Positions 22,688 through 32,646 of a stretch of 33,045 nucleotides of DNA are shown here, piece by piece. A program made the position numbers and the translations under genes. How positions within the stretch are numbered: the first letter of the stretch is position 1; every line of letters starts with the position of its first letter. This DNA comes from Solirubrobacterales bacterium (GTDB lineage Bacteria > Actinomycetota > Thermoleophilia > Solirubrobacterales > Thermoleophilaceae), in assembly GCA_012718975.1 (NCBI GenBank), contig JAAYBF010000145.1:1-33045 (forward strand), read 5' to 3'. Below the pieces are notes generated by a model that was not told the DNA's origin, did not search any database, and saw nothing but the letters and a program-made list of their open reading frames with translations.

Positions 22688-23887
22688 GTGGGTGAGCCGG
22701 CGACACGCGGACTGGACGAGGGCGCGCTGCGCGCGCTCGTGCCGCGCGTGCTCGCCGGCCTGGTCCGCCGCGGAGAGGACTTCGACGCCGCCGAGGACGC
22801 GCTCCAGGAGGCGCTGCTCGAGGCGCTGCGGGTCTGGCCGCAGCGCCCGCCGGACGATCCGCGCGCCTGGCTGACGACGGTCGCGACCCGGCGGCTCGTC
22901 GACGCCCACCGCAGCGAGGTCGCCCGCCGGCGCCGCGAGGACGCGGTCGGCGCCGAGCCGCCGCCGGGTCCCGCCGAGGAGGACGACGACACCCTGCTGC
23001 TGCTCTTTCGCTGCTGCCATCCCGACCTGGCGCCGGCCTCGCAGGTGGCGCTGACGCTGCGCGCCGTCGGCGGGCTGACCACCCGCGAGATCGCCGACGC
23101 CTTCTACGTGCCGGAGGCGACGATGGCGCAGCGGATCAGCCGGGCGAAGCGCACGTTGCGCGGCCGCCCGCTCGACCGGCCGGGCGACCTGGCCGTCGTG
23201 CTGCGCGTGCTCTACCTCGTCTACACGGCCGGCCACGCGGGCCGGGTCGACCTCGCCGCCGAGGCGATCCGGCTCGCCCGCCAGCTCACCCTCGCCACCG
23301 ACGAGCCCGAGGCCCATGGCCTGCTCGCGCTGATGCTGCTCAACCACGCCCGGCTGCCGGCGCGGATCGACTCCGACGGCCGGATCGTCACGCTCGACCG
23401 CCAGGACCGCGGTCTCTGGGACACGCGCGAGATCGCCGAGGGCGTCTGCGTGCTCCAATCGGCGCTGGCGCGCCAGAGCGACGAGCGGCCCCCGGGCCGC
23501 TACCAGGTCGAGGCGGCGATCGCCGCCCTCCACGACGACGCGCCTACGCCTTCGGAGACCGACTGGCCGCAGATCCTCGCCTGGTACGACGACCTCGTGG
23601 CGCTATCCGACGATCCGGTCCGCCAGGACCCGGCGGCGGTGCTGGGCCGCGCGGTCGCGATCGGCTACGTCCACGGCGCGACCGCCGGGCTGCGCGAGAC
23701 CGACCGGCTGCGCGACGTGATCGGCGACCGCCACCGCTGGCACGCCGCCCGCGGCCACCTGCACGAGCTCGCCGGCGAGCTGCCCGCCGCCGGCGACGCC
23801 TACGCGGAGGCCGCCCGCCTGGCCGTCAACGTCGCCGAGCGCGACCACCTGATCCGCCAGGCTGCGCAGGCGCGCGCGGGTGGCTGA
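22688..23887 (+). CDS. ECF42-type RNA polymerase sigma factor with C-terminal TPR-like domain
   Basis: 399 residues. Sigma region 2 spans about 13-80 (DFDAAEDALQEALLEALRVW, DDPRAWLTTVATRRLVDAHR). Region 4 is about 115-160 (LTLRAVGGLTTREIADAFYV, PEATMAQRISRAKRTL). Between them, DDTLLLLFRCCHPDLAP is diagnostic of the ECF42 (SigJ-like) group. The C-terminal 200-residue extension ends in helical pairs (HLHELAGELPAAGDAYAEAA), replacing an anti-sigma factor. GTG 22688 begins 4 nt after the YCII stop; the two genes form an operon. It would direct transcription from the TGTCGA-type promoter upstream. Confidence 0.93.
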   Translation: MGEPATRGLDEGALRALVPRVLAGLVRRGEDFDAAEDALQEALLEALRVWPQRPPDDPRAWLTTVATRRLVDAHRSEVARRRREDAVGAEPPPGPAEEDDDTLLLLFRCCHPDLAPASQVALTLRAVGGLTTREIADAFYVPEATMAQRISRAKRTLRGRPLDRPGDLAVVLRVLYLVYTAGHAGRVDLAAEAIRLARQLTLATDEPEAHGLLALMLLNHARLPARIDSDGRIVTLDRQDRGLWDTREIAEGVCVLQSALARQSDERPPGRYQVEAAIAALHDDAPTPSETDWPQILAWYDDLVALSDDPVRQDPAAVLGRAVAIGYVHGATAGLRETDRLRDVIGDRHRWHAARGHLHELAGELPAAGDAYAEAARLAVNVAERDHLIRQAAQARAGG

Positions 23888-24038: not shown

Positions 24039-25316
24039 GTGGACACCGCCGACGTGCTCGGACATGAGTACCGCCCGCGACTGATCGACGGGCCGCTCGA
24101 TCGTGCGCTCACCGCCGCCGGCGCCGTCGTCATCGAGGGCGCCCGGGCCAGCGGGAAGACGATGACCGCGCTGCACGCCGCCGGCTCGTATGCGTTCGTC
24201 GACGATGTCGAGGTCCGGCGCGCGCTCGAGATCGCGCCGCGCTCGGTCCTCGAGGGAGATGCCCCACGGCTGCTCGACGAGTGGCAGATCGCGCCCGAGC
24301 TCTGGAACCTCGTCAGACGCGCCGTCGATGCCAGCGCGCAGCCCGGACGGTTCATCCTGACCGGATCGGCCGTACCCGCCGACGACCCGACCCGGCACAC
24401 CGGTGCGGGACGTTTCCTCCGACTTCGCCAGCGGACCATGAGCTGGTGGGAGAAGCTCGACGGGAACGACGCCCAGGTGAGCCTCACCGGTCTGTTCGAC
24501 GGTGAGCGCCCCGTGACGGACATGAGCGCGGGCATGGAGCTCGACGAGCTCATCGAGAGCATCCTCCGCCCAGGCTTTCCCGCGATGACGGCGCTCGAGC
24601 TGGACCAGTCCGCGGATCGGCTGAGGGCCTACATCGACGAGGTCGCCAGAACCGACATCCGCCGCCTCGCCGACATTCGCCACGAGCCCGCCGCGATCGA
24701 GCAGCTCATCGCAGCGCTCGCCCGATCGGTCTCCTCCGAGGTGACCTACAAGACCCTCGCCGCCGACGTGCGAACGGTCGCGCCGACGATCGACGTCGAG
24801 ACGGTCAGCCACTACGTGGGGCTTCTGCAGCGGCTCTTCATCGTCGAGCCTCAGGGACCCTGGACGCCGGCGCTGCGCTCTCGCGCGCGCCTTCGTACCT
24901 CACCGCGGCTGCATCTCGTCGATGCGTCGCTCGCTGCAGCGTCAATGGGAGCGGGACCGACACAGCTGCGCGGCGACCTGGCGACGCTCGGTGTGCTGTT
25001 CGAGAGCGCGGTCGTCCACGATCTGATGGTTCTCGCTTCGGGAATCGCCGGCGAGGTCCGCCACTACCGCGACTCGAACGGGAAGGAGATCGACGCGATC
25101 GTCACGCTCCCAGACGGCCGCTGGGGAGCGGTGGAGGTCAAGCTCGGCGGCTCCCAGGTCCAGGCCGGCGTCGAGTCGCTTCGAAGCGCGGTCGAGCAGA
25201 TCGACACCGACGCGGTGGGGGAGCCGGAGTTCCGCCTCGTCGTCACCGGCACCGGCCCGGTCCTGACCGCCGACGACGGCACCGTGACCGCTCCCCTGAG
25301 CGCGCTGGCGCCCTGA
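24039..25316 (+). CDS. AAA ATPase with DUF4143 domain
   Basis: 425 residues. The AAA_14-type ATPase has Walker A GARASGKT (34-41) and Walker B RLLDEWQ (77-83), with sensor-like GRFILTGSAVPADDP. The middle has a winged-helix-like segment (SEVTYKTLAADVRTVAPTID, then VSHYVGLLQRLFIVEPQ). The C-terminal DUF4143 region contains a PD-(D/E)xK nuclease-like core: D352 in KEIDAIVTLPDG and E366-V-K368 in WGAVEVKLGG. The family is found in bacteria and archaea, often on mobile or accessory regions, with unknown cellular role. The gene is transcribed alone, from a leaderless promoter preceded by five tandem repeats that it may itself bind. Codon use is slightly less GC-extreme than flanking genes. Confidence 0.92.
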   Translation: MDTADVLGHEYRPRLIDGPLDRALTAAGAVVIEGARASGKTMTALHAAGSYAFVDDVEVRRALEIAPRSVLEGDAPRLLDEWQIAPELWNLVRRAVDASAQPGRFILTGSAVPADDPTRHTGAGRFLRLRQRTMSWWEKLDGNDAQVSLTGLFDGERPVTDMSAGMELDELIESILRPGFPAMTALELDQSADRLRAYIDEVARTDIRRLADIRHEPAAIEQLIAALARSVSSEVTYKTLAADVRTVAPTIDVETVSHYVGLLQRLFIVEPQGPWTPALRSRARLRTSPRLHLVDASLAAASMGAGPTQLRGDLATLGVLFESAVVHDLMVLASGIAGEVRHYRDSNGKEIDAIVTLPDGRWGAVEVKLGGSQVQAGVESLRSAVEQIDTDAVGEPEFRLVVTGTGPVLTADDGTVTAPLSALAP

Positions 25317-26610: not shown

Positions 26611-26666
26611 TTGGAGGGAAGACGTGGGGCGTGTCGCAGGCGCGAGGCGTCCGGGACTGGAGGGAA

Positions 26667-27236
26667 ATGAGTCGTCCGCGCTCGCTGCTGGAGACCATCG
26701 TGCTGGGGTCGGTGATCGAGCGGCCCGGCTACGGCTACGACCTCGGCAAGCGGATCGAGGCGCGCATGGGCCCGGGCTGGCAGTTCAACCCGTCCGGGGT
26801 GTACGCCTCGCTCGATCGCCTGAAGGAGCGCGACCTGGTCCGCTACGAGCAGCGCGAGACGCTGCCGCGGTCCTCGCCGCGCAGCCGCGACCGCGTCGTC
26901 TACCACGCGACCGACGAGGGCGTCGTCGCCTTCGAGGACTGGCTCGGCAGCGAGGTCCGCAAGGAGCCCGTGCGGATGGACGTGCTGGCCCGGATCGCGG
27001 TCGCACGGCCCGAGCACGCGCCGCTGCTGCTGGAGGCGCTGGAGGGCTATGAGCGCGAGTGCCTCGACATGGTCGCCGGGACCACGGCGCACGAGTCGCT
27101 CGATGTCCGGCCGTGGGACCGGATGATCGCCGAGGGCGTGCGCGACTCCGTGCTGCAGCACCTGCGCGCCGAGCTTGCCTGGATACGGTCGATGCGGCGG
27201 CGGATCGAGGCGTTCGGCGACGGCGAGCCCAGGTAG
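26667..27236 (+). CDS. PadR-family transcriptional regulator
   Basis: 189 residues. The N-terminal PadR winged helix is clear: RSLLETIVLGSVIERPGYGY, then FNPSGVYASLDRLKERDLVR and a charged wing, residues about 5-85. The C-terminal domain (LLLEALEGYERECLDMVAGT and LRAELAWIRSMRRRIEAF) is the dimerising helix pair. PadR proteins usually repress a neighbouring transporter gene and release DNA on binding a small hydrophobic molecule. ATG 26667 gives the usual short N-terminus, but its GGAGGG is only 2 nt away; GTG 26631 with GGAGGG 12 nt upstream is the alternative (201 residues). The ABC genes follow after 9 nt. Confidence 0.92.
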   Translation: MSRPRSLLETIVLGSVIERPGYGYDLGKRIEARMGPGWQFNPSGVYASLDRLKERDLVRYEQRETLPRSSPRSRDRVVYHATDEGVVAFEDWLGSEVRKEPVRMDVLARIAVARPEHAPLLLEALEGYERECLDMVAGTTAHESLDVRPWDRMIAEGVRDSVLQHLRAELAWIRSMRRRIEAFGDGEPR

Positions 27237-27245
27237 GCGCGCGCG

Positions 27246-27977
27246 ATGCCCCTGCTGTCCTTCGAGGGCGTCGGCAAGGCCTACCGGGGCGCCGGCGTCG
27301 TCCTCGACGGCTTCGACCTCGACGTCGACCCGGGCGAGTTCGTCGGCGTGTGGGGCGAGCGGCGGTCCGGCAAGACGACGCTGCTGCGGCTCGCCGCCGG
27401 CGTCGAGGCGCCCGACAGCGGCGTCGTCCGCTACGCCGGCCGCGACCTGGCCGACCTGTCGGAGACCGGGCGCTCGCGGCTGCGGTTGGGCGAGATCGCG
27501 CTGGCGACGATCGATGCTCCGTCGCATGTCGCTGCCAGCGCGATCACCGTGGCCGACCATGTCGGCCTCCCACTGGTCTTCGGGGGTCGATCGCAGCGAG
27601 AGGCCGCCGACGCCGCACATCGCAGCCTGCATCTGGTTGGGGCCGGGGACTGCATGTCCGCGGCGCCGTTCGAGCTGCGCCCAGGCGAAGGCACGCGCGT
27701 CGCGCTCGCGCGAGCGTTGGTCCGTGAGCCGCGACTGCTGCTGGTGGACGAGCCGGCGGTGACCCCCGACCCCACCGAGCGGGAGGAGATTCGCGACCTC
27801 CTGCATCAGCTCACGCGTTCGCTGCGCGTTGCGATGCTGGTCGCTTCTGAGGAGGTGTCGATGATGGTCGGCGCACCGCGCATCCTGTCGATCGGCGACG
27901 GCAACGTCGTTTCCAACGAGACGACGGGCACCGTGATCTCCTTCCCGGCGCCCGCACCGACGGGTGACTCGCCGTGA
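27246..27977 (+). CDS. ABC transporter ATP-binding protein with degenerate motifs
   Basis: 243 residues. Walker A GERRSGKT (37-44) and Walker B LLLVDEP (164-170) are intact. The signature motif expected as LSGGQ is replaced by LRPGE (144-148), the Q-loop region reads GEIALATID with no Gln, and the H-loop region reads MLVASEEVS with no His. It should bind ATP but probably hydrolyses it poorly. Asymmetric pairs of one degenerate and one full ATPase are known among heterodimeric ABC exporters. The stop overlaps the next ABC gene as GTGA, which strongly links the two subunits. Ser/Thr-rich C-terminal tail of about 20 residues. Confidence 0.9.
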   Translation: MPLLSFEGVGKAYRGAGVVLDGFDLDVDPGEFVGVWGERRSGKTTLLRLAAGVEAPDSGVVRYAGRDLADLSETGRSRLRLGEIALATIDAPSHVAASAITVADHVGLPLVFGGRSQREAADAAHRSLHLVGAGDCMSAAPFELRPGEGTRVALARALVREPRLLLVDEPAVTPDPTEREEIRDLLHQLTRSLRVAMLVASEEVSMMVGAPRILSIGDGNVVSNETTGTVISFPAPAPTGDSP

Positions 27978-28684
27978 GGCTCGAGTTGCGCGAAGTGGTG
28001 AAGCGCTACCGATCCGGGACCGAGACGATCCGGGCCGTCGACCGGGTGTCGTTGACGGTCGCGCCGGGCGAGCTGGTCGCGCTCTACGGACCGAGCGGTT
28101 CTGGCAAGACGACGTTGCTGCTGACAGCCGGCGCGATGCTCCGCCCCGACTCGGGAGCGGTCCTGGCAGACGACCGGGTGATCTCCGCCCTGCCGGAGTC
28201 CAAGGCGGCGGCGTTCCGCCGGGACAACATCGGCTTCGTGCTGCAGAGCTTCCACCTGATGGACTCGGCGACCATCGCCGACAACGCGGCGATCAAGCTC
28301 GTGCTCGCGGGTATGCCGCCCCGCCGCGCCCGCCGCCTCGTCCGCCCCTGGCTGGAGCGGCTCGGTCTTGGCGAACGGCACGCTGCGACGCCTGCCCGAC
28401 TGTCGACCGGAGAGCGCCAACGCGTCGCGATCGCTCGTGCGCTGGCCAACGATCCGAAGATCCTGCTGGCCGACGAGCCGACGGGCAGCCTTGACGCCGA
28501 CCGCAGCCGTGACGTGCTCAGGCTGCTGCGTGACCTGACGCGCGAGCGGGCGCTCCCCGCGATCGTCGTGACGCACGACCCCGAGGCAGCGGAAGTCGCG
28601 GACCGGACACTCGTCCTGCGCGACGGCCGCCTGACCGACGCCGGGACCCTCCCCCGTCCGGTCGGCTCGGGCACCGGGCCATGA
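27974..28684 (+). CDS. ABC transporter ATP-binding protein (MacB/LolD type)
   Basis: 236 residues with a full set of motifs: Walker A GPSGSGKT (39-46), Q-loop Gln 91 in FVLQSF, signature LSTGE (143-147) followed by RQRVAIARAL, Walker B ILLADEP (163-169), D-loop SLDA, and H-loop His 201 in VVTHDPEA. It belongs to the MacB/LolD subfamily that drives FtsX-like permeases in efflux or lipoprotein release. GTG 27974 overlaps the degenerate ATPase stop; its own stop overlaps the permease ATG as ATGA. The three subunits are therefore translated in a coupled chain. Confidence 0.95.
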   Translation: MRLELREVVKRYRSGTETIRAVDRVSLTVAPGELVALYGPSGSGKTTLLLTAGAMLRPDSGAVLADDRVISALPESKAAAFRRDNIGFVLQSFHLMDSATIADNAAIKLVLAGMPPRRARRLVRPWLERLGLGERHAATPARLSTGERQRVAIARALANDPKILLADEPTGSLDADRSRDVLRLLRDLTRERALPAIVVTHDPEAAEVADRTLVLRDGRLTDAGTLPRPVGSGTGP

Positions 28685-31176
28685 TCCGCCTCGCCGGGCT
28701 GCGGATCAGGGCGCTGTTCGGGTTCTACGCGGCAAGGATCCGCCAGCACCCGGTCCAGGAGATGCTCGCGGGAGCTGGGATCGCGGTGGGCGTGGCGCTG
28801 GTCTACGCGGTGATGGTCTCGAGCGCCAGCATCACCGGCTCGGCGGCTCGTGTCGTCGAGGGCGTCGCCGGCCACGCCCAGCTCCAGGTGACCGCCCGTA
28901 GCGATCAGGGGTTCGATCAACGGCTCGCGGCCGAGATTCGAGCGCTCGACGGCGTCGAGGACGCGGCACCGCTGCTGCGGTCGAACGTCATGTTGGTCGG
29001 CCCGGACGGGTCGCGATCGACGCAAATGGTTGGCGTATCCCCGACGCTCGCGGCGCTGGGCGGTGAGCTTGGACCGATCCTCGCCGACGGCGACGCGCTC
29101 GGGACCGGGCTCGCAGTATCGGAGGGCGTCGCCGAGTCGCTCGGCGTCGCCTCCGGTGGCTCCGTCGAGCTGCGAGCCGACGGCCGTGCCCGCATGGTTC
29201 CACTGTCTGTGCTCAGCCCGGAGGTCGGCGGCGCACTCGCCGGAAGTGGCGCCGTCGTGACGTCGTTGAGACTCGCCCAGCGGTACGCGAACCGTGATCG
29301 CAGGGTTTCCCAGGTCCTGGTCCAGACGATCTCTGGCAGGCGGCCCGCCGTGGAGCGAGAGTTGGAGCGCCTCGCCGGCGGCTTTGCGAACGTCACCGGC
29401 GTCGACGCCGAGCTTGCCGCGCTGCGACAGGCGACCAAGCCGAACGACCAGTCGACGCAACTCTTCGCCGCCATCGGCGTGATGGTCGGCTGGCTGATCT
29501 CGTTCAACGCGATGCTGTTCACAGTGGCTGAGCGGCGGCGGTTCGTCACGGCGCTGCGGCTGGAGGGGGCGTCGCCCCGCCAGCCGCTGACCATCCTCGG
29601 ATTCGAGGCGCTCCTGCTCGGTGTCTTGGCGTCCGGTTTCGGGCTGCTCCTCGGCGAGCTGCTGGTGCGCCTGATCTTCGACGACGTGCCCGACTACCTG
29701 GCATTCGCCTTCCCGGTCGGCAGCGGGCGGGACTTCCAGCCGTCGATTGTCGTGCTCTGTTTCCTCGGTGGAGTGCTCGCAGCCGGCCTCGACGCCTTCT
29801 ACCGGGGACAGGCCGAGTCCCGGGAGGAGATCGCGCCCCGCACAGGCCGGTTCCTTCTCTGGACAGCGCTCGCGGTGGTTGCGGCGACGACCGTCGTCGC
29901 GGTCGCGGTTCCCGCGGTGACGATCGTCGGTGGCATCACCCTGGCTGTCGCAGCGATGCTGGTGATGCCCGTCGCGTTCAGGTTCGCCGCCGGATGGCTC
30001 GAGCGGGTTACAGGTTCCACAAGCCGGCTGAACATGCTCTCGGTCGCCCTGATGGAGCTGCGCGGGCCAACCACGCGGGGAGTGGCGCTGACCGCCGTCG
30101 CCGCGGTGGCCGTTTATGGAAGCGTCGCGATTGGCGGCGCGAGAGACGACATCGTCCGAGGGCTGGACAGCCACACGCGGCAGTGGCTGTCCAACGCCGA
30201 CCTCTGGGTCACCACCGGCGGCCAGGACCTGATGATCAACAGCTTCACCGCCCCTGACCTCGACAGGCTCCGGGCGGCCGAGGCCGTCGCCGCGGTACGG
30301 GTCCATCGCGGCGGCTTCCTCGACATCGGCGACCGGCGGCTCTGGCTGATCGGCCGTCCGGTCGACTCGCCGACGATGATCCCCGCCAGTCAGATGCTCG
30401 ACGGTGACATCGAGCAGGCGACCGCTCGACTGCGGGCCGGCGGCTGGGCAACCGCGTCGGCTGCCTTCGCGAACGAGCGAGGAGTCGAGGTCGGCGACCG
30501 CCTCAGGCTGCCCACGCCCACCGGCGCCCGGTCGTTCCGCCTCGCCGCGACGACGTTGAACTTCGGGTGGATTCCAGGCGCGGTGACGATCAACAACCGC
30601 GACTACGCGGATGCGGTGGGCACCGTCGCGCCATCCGCGTTGGAGGTCGACCTCGCGCCGGGCACGTCCGCTGAGGCTGGTCGACAGGCCGTCGAGGCGG
30701 CGCTCGGCCCCGCCTCGGGCCTGACGGTGCAGACCCGTGCCGAGCGGGAAGCGCAGTACTACGACTTCGGCCGCGAGGGCATCGCCCGCCTGGACCAGAT
30801 CGCGGCGCTCCTGCTGCTCGCCGCTGCTCTGGCGGTGGCCTGCGCGCTCGCCGCGGCGGCCTGGCAGCGCAGGCCGCGCCTCGCAGCGCTGAAGATCCAG
30901 GGTGCGACGCGTACCCAGCTTTGGCGGGCGATGCTCTGTGAGGCTGGCGTACTCGTAGCCATCGGGTGCACGGTCGGACTGACACTGGGCGTCTACGGCC
31001 ACCTGCTCGCTGGACGGTTCGTCCGGTCCGCCACCGGGTTTGCGAGCCCGTTCACGCTCCAGGCCGACGAACTGCTGCTCGCCGGCGGCTTCGTTGCCGT
31101 GGTAGCCCTGGCGGTCAGCGCGATTCCGGGATGGTTCGCCGCGGGTGCGTCTGCGCGAGCCAGCTTCTCCGAGTGA
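28681..31176 (+). CDS. FtsX/MacB-type ABC permease, ten predicted TM segments
   Basis: 831 residues. One TM near the N-terminus (about 27-48) is followed by a large extracytoplasmic domain (50-255). Three TMs (about 262-282, 304-332, 355-373) form the first FtsX unit, then two more TMs (391-412, 414-437) and one at about 467-485. A second extracellular domain (490-700) leads to three final TMs (about 706-727, 750-772, 795-820). Two FtsX cores in one chain mean that a single polypeptide can replace a permease dimer. Partnered with one full and one degenerate ATPase, it is likely a mechanotransmission-type exporter of antibiotics, lipids or peptides; the cargo is unknown. Confidence 0.93.
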   Translation: MIRLAGLRIRALFGFYAARIRQHPVQEMLAGAGIAVGVALVYAVMVSSASITGSAARVVEGVAGHAQLQVTARSDQGFDQRLAAEIRALDGVEDAAPLLRSNVMLVGPDGSRSTQMVGVSPTLAALGGELGPILADGDALGTGLAVSEGVAESLGVASGGSVELRADGRARMVPLSVLSPEVGGALAGSGAVVTSLRLAQRYANRDRRVSQVLVQTISGRRPAVERELERLAGGFANVTGVDAELAALRQATKPNDQSTQLFAAIGVMVGWLISFNAMLFTVAERRRFVTALRLEGASPRQPLTILGFEALLLGVLASGFGLLLGELLVRLIFDDVPDYLAFAFPVGSGRDFQPSIVVLCFLGGVLAAGLDAFYRGQAESREEIAPRTGRFLLWTALAVVAATTVVAVAVPAVTIVGGITLAVAAMLVMPVAFRFAAGWLERVTGSTSRLNMLSVALMELRGPTTRGVALTAVAAVAVYGSVAIGGARDDIVRGLDSHTRQWLSNADLWVTTGGQDLMINSFTAPDLDRLRAAEAVAAVRVHRGGFLDIGDRRLWLIGRPVDSPTMIPASQMLDGDIEQATARLRAGGWATASAAFANERGVEVGDRLRLPTPTGARSFRLAATTLNFGWIPGAVTINNRDYADAVGTVAPSALEVDLAPGTSAEAGRQAVEAALGPASGLTVQTRAEREAQYYDFGREGIARLDQIAALLLLAAALAVACALAAAAWQRRPRLAALKIQGATRTQLWRAMLCEAGVLVAIGCTVGLTLGVYGHLLAGRFVRSATGFASPFTLQADELLLAGGFVAVVALAVSAIPGWFAAGASARASFSE

Positions 31177-31177
31177 C

Positions 31178-31783
31178 CTACTCACGGCGCAGGGCCTTCA
31201 GGAGAGATGCGACGGAACGTCGACGTCGACGGGGCGCCGCGGTCGGATAGCCGCGCAGAATCAGCCACGCCGATACCGCCGACTCGACCAGCACAGACCG
31301 GGCGGCCATCAGGTGCTCCGTGGTGGCGGGTCTCGCGCGCGCCGGCGACCGGCCCGGCACCAGCTCGTCGAGCTCGGTGAGCAGGCGGGAGGGCAATGTG
31401 CACACGATCGTGACCAGCTCGCCGTCGTCGAGGCGCAAGGCGGGCTGGACGCGCCTCGCTCGTCGCGCGCTGCGCTCCCGACGCGTCGTGAGACCGCTCC
31501 GCGCCCGGGCACCCCCCACGTGGGAGCGCGTGGCGACTTCGATCGCCGCGGACCTCAGTGCCCAGGCCGTGTCGTCGCCACCGCTCGACCACCCCAGCGG
31601 CCGCAAGCGCGCGAGGGCCTCGTCGAGAGCGTCGACGCAGCCTCGACTGAGCCGCAACGTGCATGGCGTTCGGTCACCCGTCGGGGTCTGCCTGATCTCC
31701 TGGAAGCAGTCGAGGATCGCCTGATCCCACGCCTCCAGGGCCGCGGAGCGCTCACCACGATGGCGCGGCAGGGCCGTGCTCAT
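31178..31783 (-). CDS. Putative DNA-binding protein with two ribbon-helix-helix-like repeats
   Basis: 201 residues, family not recognised. Two segments look like RHH (CopG/Arc-type) units. The first is TPCTLRLSRGCVDALDEALA then ALRSAAIEVATRSHV. The second is VTIVCTLPSRLLTELDELVP then AARSVLVESAVSAWLILR. Each has a beta strand of alternating residues, a helix with the LDEL/LDEA pattern, and a second helix with an RS-x5-A pattern; a charged, Arg-rich linker lies between. RHH proteins normally dimerise to form one DNA-binding unit, so two units in one chain could bind DNA as a monomer. The C-terminus is basic (PRRRRRSVASLLKALRRE). It converges on the FtsX permease with a 1-nt gap. No Shine-Dalgarno sequence is obvious at ATG 31783. 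Confidence 0.65.
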   Translation of the reverse strand: MSTALPRHRGERSAALEAWDQAILDCFQEIRQTPTGDRTPCTLRLSRGCVDALDEALARLRPLGWSSGGDDTAWALRSAAIEVATRSHVGGARARSGLTTRRERSARRARRVQPALRLDDGELVTIVCTLPSRLLTELDELVPGRSPARARPATTEHLMAARSVLVESAVSAWLILRGYPTAAPRRRRRSVASLLKALRRE

Positions 31784-31959
31784 CTGGTGCGTTGAGAGCG
31801 TTGCTGAGCCATTCGGCCGCCGACCGTACGGACGCGCCGCCCGTCCCGCCAGGCTTCCGCCGACTATTCAGCGGTAGGTATCGGGGCCGGTGTGGTCACG
31901 CTGTCAGGCTGCGCCTGAGTAGTCGGGTGAAGGCATCGACGGCGGACACCGGGCCGGCA

Positions 31960-31965
31960 TACGTT
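31960..31965 (+). promoter_or_regulatory. -10-like element upstream of the unknown gene
   Basis: TACGTT, with TCGACG 18 bp upstream as a weak -35 (31936-31941). It would start transcription about 47 nt before GTG 32020, leaving room for the Shine-Dalgarno sequence. Confidence 0.35.
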
Positions 31966-32019
31966 GAGGCCGGCCCGCGCGACCGGGCCGGCCGTGCCAT
32001 GGAACTGGAGGGAGGGCAA

Positions 32020-32646
32020 GTGCCACCTGCCGCTGCCGAGGACGTCGAGCTGGGACCGGAGATCGTCGACGGCTGCCTCGCCAGGCTCGCCTCACCACAC
32101 CGGTTCGAGGCGGTCGGCGTCTCGCTCGACGGCGAGTACCTGCGCTACCTCGACGCCGCGCTCGCGGAGGTCGCCGCCCACGACGCGCGGCTCGCCGAGC
32201 CCGCGCCCGACCCCCCGGCCCTGCGATCCGCTGCCGCGGACATCCTCGTCGCGAAGGCGCTCGACGTTCGCGCGGGCGGCCAGGGTCACGTGCCGGGCGC
32301 GGGAATCGAGCGGGCGCTGGCCGGCGACATCTCCAACGTCCTCCTCGACGGGCTCGTGCGCCGGCTCGGCTCGCCGCCGCAGCCGCCGCCGACCCACGTC
32401 GACCTCCTGCTGAGCCACGAGACGCGCGGCCGCCTCGACACCGAGCTTCATTACCTCGTCGAGGTCTGCATCTACCCCGAGGACCAGCCGTACTATCGAG
32501 GCGACGGGTCCCCGGATCTCCGCTCGGCCTTCGTCGAGGCGGTACTGGTGACGTGGCTGGTCTGGACGTGTCGCGGGGAAGGCCCGGCGCGTCGCGTGTG
32601 TGCCGAGTCATGCGCCCGGCCGGACACTGGCGGCTGGCGCCGCTGA
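32020..32646 (+). CDS. Unrecognised protein, 208 residues
   Basis: I do not recognise the family. GTG 32020 is chosen because GGAGGGAGGG (32007-32016) sits just upstream; ATG 31999 in the same frame lacks a Shine-Dalgarno sequence, and codons further upstream look non-coding. The protein is mostly helical and acidic: DVELGPEIVDGCLARLASPH, then YLRYLDAALAEVAAHDARLA, a Pro-rich joint near SPPQPPPTHVD, and RLDTELHYLVEVCIYPEDQP. The VVE-like core and hydrophobic C-terminal AFVEAVLVTWLVWTCRGEG suggest a compact domain with a possible membrane-near end. Its 3' end overlaps the convergent MmpL gene by 39 nt. Confidence 0.6.
   Translation: MPPAAAEDVELGPEIVDGCLARLASPHRFEAVGVSLDGEYLRYLDAALAEVAAHDARLAEPAPDPPALRSAAADILVAKALDVRAGGQGHVPGAGIERALAGDISNVLLDGLVRRLGSPPQPPPTHVDLLLSHETRGRLDTELHYLVEVCIYPEDQPYYRGDGSPDLRSAFVEAVLVTWLVWTCRGEGPARRVCAESCARPDTGGWRR

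What the first reader, a model, noticed from the sequence alone, without database searches (positions are those of the whole stretch)
27246..28684. Asymmetric ABC-ATPase pair: one degenerate, one complete
The first ATPase keeps Walker A and B but lacks the LSGGQ signature, the Q-loop Gln and the H-loop His; the second has all. They overlap by GTGA. Most MacB/FtsX systems have a single type of ATPase. A heterodimer with one dead site, joined to a permease in which two FtsX cores are fused, would give a fully asymmetric transporter.
Basis: partly seen in the sequence, partly recalled or inferred. Interest (0 to 1): 0.55.

Follow-up and report, generated by a model that had tools for sequence, protein, structure and literature searches.

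The report
Conserved half-dead ATPase pair, FtsX transporter
A soil actinobacterium carries a membrane pump whose two engine proteins are unequal, one working and one that has kept its ATP pocket but lost its catalytic parts; the same unequal pair recurs in dozens of related genomes, usually beside a terpene-making enzyme gene, so it looks like a real and undescribed design rather than a decayed gene.

Summary
ABC1 (27246-27977) keeps Walker A and B but has no Q-loop Gln, LRPGEGT for the signature and Glu for the switch His; ABC2 (27974-28684) is canonical. Of 92 ABC1 relatives 1 has the switch His and 19 keep both signature Ser and Gly; all 92 keep the Walker B Asp; their 76 ABC2 partners are essentially intact. 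ABC1 is one clade: an old pseudo-ATPase family, seen only in Solirubrobacterales-type genomes.

The permease is YbbP-like, a known plan normally served by two identical ATPases. All defects sit in one subunit, so an ABC1:ABC2 dimer has two hybrid sites, not one dead and one canonical. A nested nine-permease clade lost ABC1 but kept ABC2.

New: DUF2600 (tetraprenyl-beta-curcumene synthase family) genes accompany the family; 86 of 96 examined lie within 1.5 kb of it, though the window's contig has none. Best guess: a YbbAP-like machine with a non-hydrolysing ATPase seat, handling a terpenoid-like lipid. Heterodimer and cargo are inferred.

The parts
26631..27236 (+). PadR-family transcriptional regulator, first gene of the cluster
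   Evidence: Pfam PadR 44.6 bits, cut-off 27; a PadR lies upstream on the same strand within 400 nt of 84 of 92 ABC1 relatives
27246..27977 (+). ABC1, ATPase-like subunit with degenerate Q-loop, signature, D-loop and switch
   Evidence: Pfam ABC_tran; motif table; model pLDDT 89.7, best PDB match YbbA 9ge8_B
27354..27380 (+). ABC1 Walker A GERRSGKTT (residues 37-45)
   Evidence: translation; last Gly of the P-loop 92 of 92, Lys 57 and Arg 35 of 92 relatives
27675..27695 (+). ABC1 degenerate signature LRPGEGT (residues 144-150)
   Evidence: translation, alignment
27849..27851 (+). ABC1 switch position, Glu202 in place of His
   Evidence: alignment
27974..28684 (+). ABC2, canonical ATPase of the LolD/MacB/FtsE class
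   Evidence: Pfam ABC_tran 109 bits, closest NCBIfam LolD/MacB/FtsE
28244..28246 (+). ABC2 Q-loop Gln91
   Evidence: alignment
28400..28420 (+). ABC2 signature LSTGERQ
   Evidence: alignment
28574..28576 (+). ABC2 switch His201
   Evidence: alignment
28681..31176 (+). Permease, 831 aa, two FtsX cores, ten predicted membrane helices, two large extracytoplasmic domains
   Evidence: Pfam FtsX, 2 stretches; family-mean hydropathy; low-confidence model whose best PDB match is YbbP 9ge6_A

Best explanation
This is a Type VII (MacB/FtsX superfamily) ABC system of the YbbAP kind in which one of the two identical ATPases has been replaced by a dedicated pseudo-ATPase. Shown: a PadR-headed operon encodes one ten-helix, two-core permease, one canonical ATPase (ABC2) and one old, conserved, catalytically degenerate ATPase-like protein (ABC1). 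Inferred: ABC1 and ABC2 take the two NBD seats under the permease. ATP held between the ABC1 pocket and the intact ABC2 signature acts as a non-hydrolysed clamp (site I); any hydrolysis happens in the ABC2 pocket against the weak ABC1 signature (site II), so the cycle is slow and one-sided. Inferred from gene neighbourhood: in most family members the machine extracts or exports a hydrophobic, terpenoid-like product made by the neighbouring DUF2600 enzyme, under PadR control. The window copy has no such enzyme on its contig; its genome has three DUF2600 genes on two other contigs beside sister systems.
For: Motif split ABC1 against ABC2 in 92 and 76 sequences. ABC1 monophyletic, 92 of 92 rows, support 98.8. 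dN/dS 0.16-0.59 for ABC1 against 0.14-0.42 for ABC2 in the same 8 locus pairs: purifying selection. Order PadR-ABC1-ABC2-permease repeated; 39 of 76 ABC1-ABC2 junctions overlap. ABC1 folds as a full NBD nearest YbbA; permease profile matches LolC/LolE and its ten-helix plan matches the published YbbP plan (PMC12646458 section 10). DUF2600: 48 of 68 ABC1 loci with at least 5.2 kb downstream have it in the gene chain, 41 on the same strand; 86 of 96 examined DUF2600 genes are within 1.5 kb of the family; the C98 copy matches tetraprenyl-beta-curcumene synthase 5yo8, E 3.9e-43.
Against: No complex could be modelled or measured. ABC1's signature, which would face the only competent pocket, is poorly conserved (Ser 44 of 92, Gly 29 of 92, both lost 38 of 92). 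A nested nine-member permease clade lost ABC1 and keeps ABC2. 35 of 92 ABC1 have Arg for the Walker A Lys, which may not bind ATP. Six permeases have ABC1 but no adjacent ABC2. Within single genomes ABC1 and ABC2 distances correlate only weakly (r 0.17-0.66; 77 to 320 of 2000 permutations as high, five genomes). The window itself has no DUF2600.
Confidence: 0.52

Rival explanations
1. ABC2 homodimer is the motor; ABC1 is a regulatory or competing subunit that docks only at times (an ATP-sensing brake), not an obligate half of the motor.
For: A nested clade of nine permeases lost ABC1 and kept ABC2 and, in five fetched loci (L295, L296, L298, L299, L319), an adjacent DUF2600; the ABC1 signature is weakly constrained; ABC2 keeps every motif needed for a homodimer.
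Against: ABC1 and ABC2 are genes of one tight operon with overlapping junctions in 39 of 76 pairs; ABC1 evolves under purifying selection like ABC2; within the ingroup the triad is the ancestral arrangement.
Confidence: 0.25
2. Ordinary asymmetric ABC design: one dead composite site, one fully canonical site, as in TM287/288 or Pdr5.
For: Consistent loss of the switch His in one subunit.
Against: In Pdr5 the degenerate site combines Walker/H changes in one NBD with signature changes in the other (PMC7756269, passages). Here the ABC2 signature is intact in 75-76 of 76 and the ABC1 signature is the broken one, so no fully canonical site remains in a heterodimer.
Confidence: 0.1
3. The systems are envelope-stress or antimicrobial-resistance machines of BceAB style rather than terpenoid handlers; the DUF2600 enzyme adjusts prenyl diphosphate pools instead of making a cargo.
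For: In Bacillus subtilis, deleting ytpB (same enzyme family) while limiting MenA lets heptaprenyl diphosphate accumulate, which had been linked to bacitracin sensitivity and BceAB (PMC7038271, passages); PadR regulators often answer to toxic compounds (recalled).
Against: The same paper found that heptaprenyl diphosphate accumulation does not inhibit BceAB. The permease has two outer domains, BceB one (PMC11466899 and PMC12646458, passages). No histidine kinase turned up among the neighbouring proteins scanned, though none was searched for as such.
Confidence: 0.2
4. Local decay: ABC1 is a degenerating duplicate of ABC2.
For: The window signature has lost the Ser that the close relative L009 keeps (LSQGER).
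Against: Same kind of defects across the clade, intact frames, dN/dS below 1, separate old clade from ABC2.
Confidence: 0.02

Closest known systems
E. coli YbbAP-TesA (Type VII ABC, PDB 9GE6-9GE8; PMC12646458)
   Same: One permease chain with two FtsX cores, ten helices, outer domains between helices 1-2 and 7-8; LolD-like ATPase; ABC1 model's best PDB match is YbbA; proposed to extract hydrophobic molecules from the membrane.
   Different: YbbAP has two identical YbbA; here two different ATPase genes, one degenerate. Partner is TesA there; here the recurrent neighbours are a DUF2600 terpene synthase-like gene and a PadR regulator.
LolCDE / MacB / FtsEX / YtrEF (Type VII)
   Same: Superfamily by profile and Pfam FtsX.
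   Different: Identical ATPases (LolCDE: PMC8277102 passages; B. subtilis Type VII: PMC11466899 passages).
Degenerate-site ABC exporters (TM287/288, BmrCD, TmrAB, Pdr5, TAP)
   Same: One NBD with lost catalytic residues.
   Different: Another transporter fold; degenerate residues assemble into one composite site, leaving the other canonical (PMC7756269, passages).
RbsA/NupO fused NBDs
   Same: A degenerate NBD as a standing feature (PMC11466899 passages).
   Different: Importers, one fused polypeptide, Walker A Lys lost.
C-P lyase PhnK/PhnL dual ABC dimer (7z15, 7z16)
   Same: Two different ABC proteins pair (entry titles in the listing only).
   Different: Bound to C-P lyase, not to an FtsX permease.
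Tetraprenyl-beta-curcumene synthase YtpB family (PF10776, PDB 5yo8)
   Same: Neighbouring genes in sister loci belong here, with conserved D98/D101/E105 and D260/D264/D268.
   Different: Product unknown; absent from the window.

Membership tests
Type VII (MacB/FtsX) ABC systems | FtsX-type permease core | tested here: met
   PF02687, 68.4 bits, 2 stretches; LolC/LolE/MacB by profile, best E 3e-9
Type VII (MacB/FtsX) ABC systems | ATPase of the LolD/FtsE/MacB class | tested here: met
   Best NCBIfam for both ABC1 and ABC2 is LolD, below the equivalog cut-off
YbbAP type | Ten helices with two large outer domains in one chain | tested here: met
   Family-mean hydropathy over 67 permeases; the structure model itself is low confidence, pLDDT 59
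YbbAP type | Two copies of one ATPase | tested here: not met
   Two different ATPase genes here; single-ATPase relatives exist outside the clade, L310-L313
YbbAP type | TesA periplasmic hydrolase partner | not tested
   No search for TesA was made
BceAB type | Single outer domain | tested here: not met
   Two soluble stretches, about residues 50-260 and 485-705
Asymmetric exporters with one degenerate composite site | Degenerate Walker/H in one NBD with degenerate signature in the other, second site canonical | tested here: not met
   Signature defect lies in the same subunit as the H/Q defect
Asymmetric exporters with one degenerate composite site | Physical NBD heterodimer | not testable with these tools
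   Only single chains can be predicted
DUF2600 / tetraprenyl-beta-curcumene synthase-linked system | PF10776 gene in the cluster | tested here: not met
   Met in most sister loci but absent from the window contig

The most novel reading that the evidence does not exclude
A Type VII ABC machine with an obligate heterodimer in which every defect is in one subunit (a clamp-type pseudo-ATPase), dedicated to terpenoids or prenyl lipids made by a co-encoded DUF2600 cyclase and multiplied to as many as eleven paralogous systems per genome in Solirubrobacterales.
Probability: 0.33. Interest if true: 0.8.

Novelty: new variant of a known kind. Interest (0 to 1): 0.58.

Why it matters
[quoted passage not shown] A large family with a conserved pseudo-ATPase, plus natural relatives that lost either partner, would let one test directly whether these mechanical ABC machines need two hydrolysis events, one, or only ATP binding. 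The tie to DUF2600 genes gives a first handle on an unknown class of bacterial terpenoids and how they leave the membrane.

Tried and rejected
Local decay of ABC1: rejected by conservation and dN/dS. Misbinned contig: the sigma-factor gene 22688-23887 is 85% identical in two same-genus genomes (82% in G042), so the contig fits the genus; an earlier test with the AAA/DUF4143 gene was uninformative. The operon is accessory in the genus: 0 of 4 other same-genus genomes have it. Phylum search with the ABC1 profile: 396 of 396 genomes match at E 1e-30, uninformative because canonical ATPases match; 0 of 29 fetched best loci from other genomes (L121-L149) score higher with the ABC1 profile than with the ABC2 profile (7 candidates scored per genome). 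Mirror-tree: r 0.70 over 67 triads but weak within genomes, so not used as proof of pairing. Which permease half binds which ATPase: partial correlations and coupling-helix comparison (mean identity of the two helices 0.30 in 75 triads, 0.43 in 4 single-ATPase relatives, ranges overlap) do not decide. A conserved ABC1 C-terminal tail (hydrophobic-x-hydrophobic-Pro): only 47 of 92 (5 of 76 ABC2). ABC1-ABC2 natural fusions: none among the ORFs tested. Permease model too poor for fold conclusions.

Full report
Observation. The window holds four genes in a row on the + strand: PadR regulator 26631-27236, ABC1 27246-27977, ABC2 27974-28684 and permease 28681-31176, with GTGA and ATGA overlaps at the last two junctions. 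Pfam gives PadR, ABC_tran (67 and 109 bits) and FtsX with two stretches. Aligned with ABC2, ABC1 has GERRSGKTT for Walker A, LLLVDE for Walker B, no Gln in the Q-loop stretch, LRPGEGT for the signature, TPD for the D-loop and Glu202 where the switch His should be. ABC2 has all motifs.

Conservation. Searching 232 genomes of the order with an ABC1 profile gave 31 with a match at E 1e-64 or better, in 5 of 54 genera, and in the window's genus only the window's own genome (1 of 5). I fetched these loci and kept ORFs with at least 150 bits that scored higher with the ABC1 than the ABC2 profile: 92 distinct ABC1, 76 with an ABC2 directly behind. Motifs, ABC1: switch His 1 of 92, Q-loop Gln 9 of 92 (loose alignment), signature Ser 44 of 92, signature Gly 29 of 92, both 19 of 92, Walker A Lys 57 and Arg 35 of 92, Walker B Asp 92 of 92, Glu 57 of 92, D-loop Asp 32 of 92. 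ABC2: His 76, Gln 74, Ser 75, Gly 76, Glu 76, Lys 76 of 76. More diverged ABC1 found by position next to other permeases (10 complete, 13; one frame-broken gene in L303 and one unrelated ABC hit in L348 left out) are degenerate too; three of them (L293, L324, L334) have a His one residue off, where the alignment is not certain. So no relative with restored motifs was found, but because selection was partly by profile the 92 are not a blind sample.

Age and spread. A tree of 92 ABC1, 76 ABC2 and 54 other ATPases puts ABC1 in one clade (support 98.8) and ABC2 in another (97). Copies are numerous: 11 in G114, 9 in G042, 6 each in G090 and G146. dN/dS between close copies is 0.16-0.59 for ABC1 and 0.14-0.42 for ABC2 over 8 pairs of loci.

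Permease. Family-mean hydropathy of 67 permeases predicts ten helices with soluble stretches after the first and the seventh. A profile of seven permeases finds LolC and LolE, best E 3e-9, then MacB and LolF. The structure model is poor (pLDDT 59, pTM 0.39); its best PDB match is YbbP 9ge6_A, E 2.2e-14 but TM-score only about 0.3. ABC1 models well (pLDDT 89.7) and its best match by E-value is YbbA 9ge8_B. YbbAP-TesA is 2:1:1 with two YbbA, ten helices, and coupling helices after helix 2 and helix 8 (PMC12646458, section 10 read; abstract and passages seen). Hence the fused permease is a known plan; the unequal ATPases are the unusual part. In B. subtilis the Type VII systems in the table rows I saw have identical NBDs (PMC11466899, passages).

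History of gain and loss. A search with the permease profile (35 of 232 genomes; only 4 candidates scored per genome) and its loci, together with the loci already held, gave 105 distinct permeases: 76 with ABC1 and ABC2, 13 with ABC2 only, 6 with ABC1 only, 10 unclear or neither. Rooted on four single-ATPase relatives (L310-L313), the triad is ancestral in the ingroup of 101; nine permeases without a detected ABC1 (two of them with the contig ending nearby) form one clade, support 100, inside the triads, with a further separate case L294. Upstream of twelve ABC2-only genes no ABC1 was found even at E 0.1. So ABC1 appears to have been gained once near the base and lost later at least once, which suggests that ABC2 can manage without it. 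Two of the ABC1-only loci (L305, L306) group with support 100 in different genomes, so loss of ABC2 is also inherited there, and a partner in trans is then likely.

Composite sites. [quoted passage not shown] In Pdr5 the Walker and H changes in NBD1 go with the signature change in NBD2, all in one site (same source). Here the signature change is in ABC1 itself. In an ABC1:ABC2 dimer site I (ABC1 pocket, ABC2 signature) can hold ATP but lacks Q and His; site II (ABC2 pocket, ABC1 signature) has all catalytic residues but a weak signature. ABC1's pocket residues are kept better than its signature, which is why I favour a clamp role for ABC1. This is inference.

Gene neighbourhood. Clustering of neighbouring ORFs over 29 loci showed that the gene after the permease is often DUF2600 (Pfam for two own-genome copies). 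Of 68 ABC1 loci with at least 5.2 kb downstream, 48 have DUF2600 in the gene chain (gaps up to 1.5 kb), 41 on the same strand. In the order 30 of 232 genomes have PF10776 and 24 of these are among the 31 ABC1 genomes (my count); two more, G112 and G138, have diverged triads beside it. Of 98 DUF2600 matches (fragments of one gene merged by me), 96 were examined: 65 plus 21 (my count) lie within 1.5 kb of a family gene; one is 2.2 kb away, four are in genomes without the family, five others show no such neighbour, some at contig ends. The C98 copy matches tetraprenyl-beta-curcumene synthase 5yo8 at E 3.9e-43, and acidic motifs are conserved in 18 sequences. The window is the whole contig (33,045 bases) and has none; the same genome has three DUF2600 genes beside sister systems on C98 and C217.

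What is in print. Searches for FtsX/MacB with degenerate or heterodimeric NBDs, DUF2600, tetraprenyl-beta-curcumene synthase, YbbAP, terpene with FtsX and Solirubrobacter, YtrEF and class IB terpene synthase listed no description of this pair or this cluster; only open-licence papers are held. For these I read listings; passages were read only in the papers cited by identifier.

Noticed in passing
L039:7926-8687 and L039:8684-9418: The window's genome has a lone, weakly scoring ABC1-like gene (192 bits) followed by an uncharacterised 244-aa protein that is 42% identical to one beside the C217 system (L038:7505-8113).
   Followed up: partly
window 31792-32646 (+) and 31178-31783 (-): Downstream of the permease lie two uncharacterised frames; 31792-32646 is weakly similar (26%, E 1.7e-7 in a four-sequence comparison) to the unknown proteins beside the sister systems.
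   Followed up: partly
L295, L296, L298, L299, L319: In the ABC1-less clade the DUF2600 gene sits directly upstream of ABC2 and no PadR was found there, a rearranged version of the cluster.
   Followed up: partly
L305, L306, L189, L213, L224, L239: ABC1 directly followed by permease with no adjacent ABC2; suggests sharing of ABC2 between paralogous systems or decay.
   Followed up: partly
L303:6885-7645: An ABC1 gene split over two frames, apparently broken.
   Followed up: no
G114, G042: Up to eleven ABC1 paralogues in a 3.6-Mb genome, diverged to about 40% mean identity.
   Followed up: no
window 24039-25316: AAA_14/DUF4143 protein just upstream, 44-46% identical in two genomes of other genera but 36% in one and undetected in three of the four other same-genus genomes searched, so probably mobile.
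   Followed up: no
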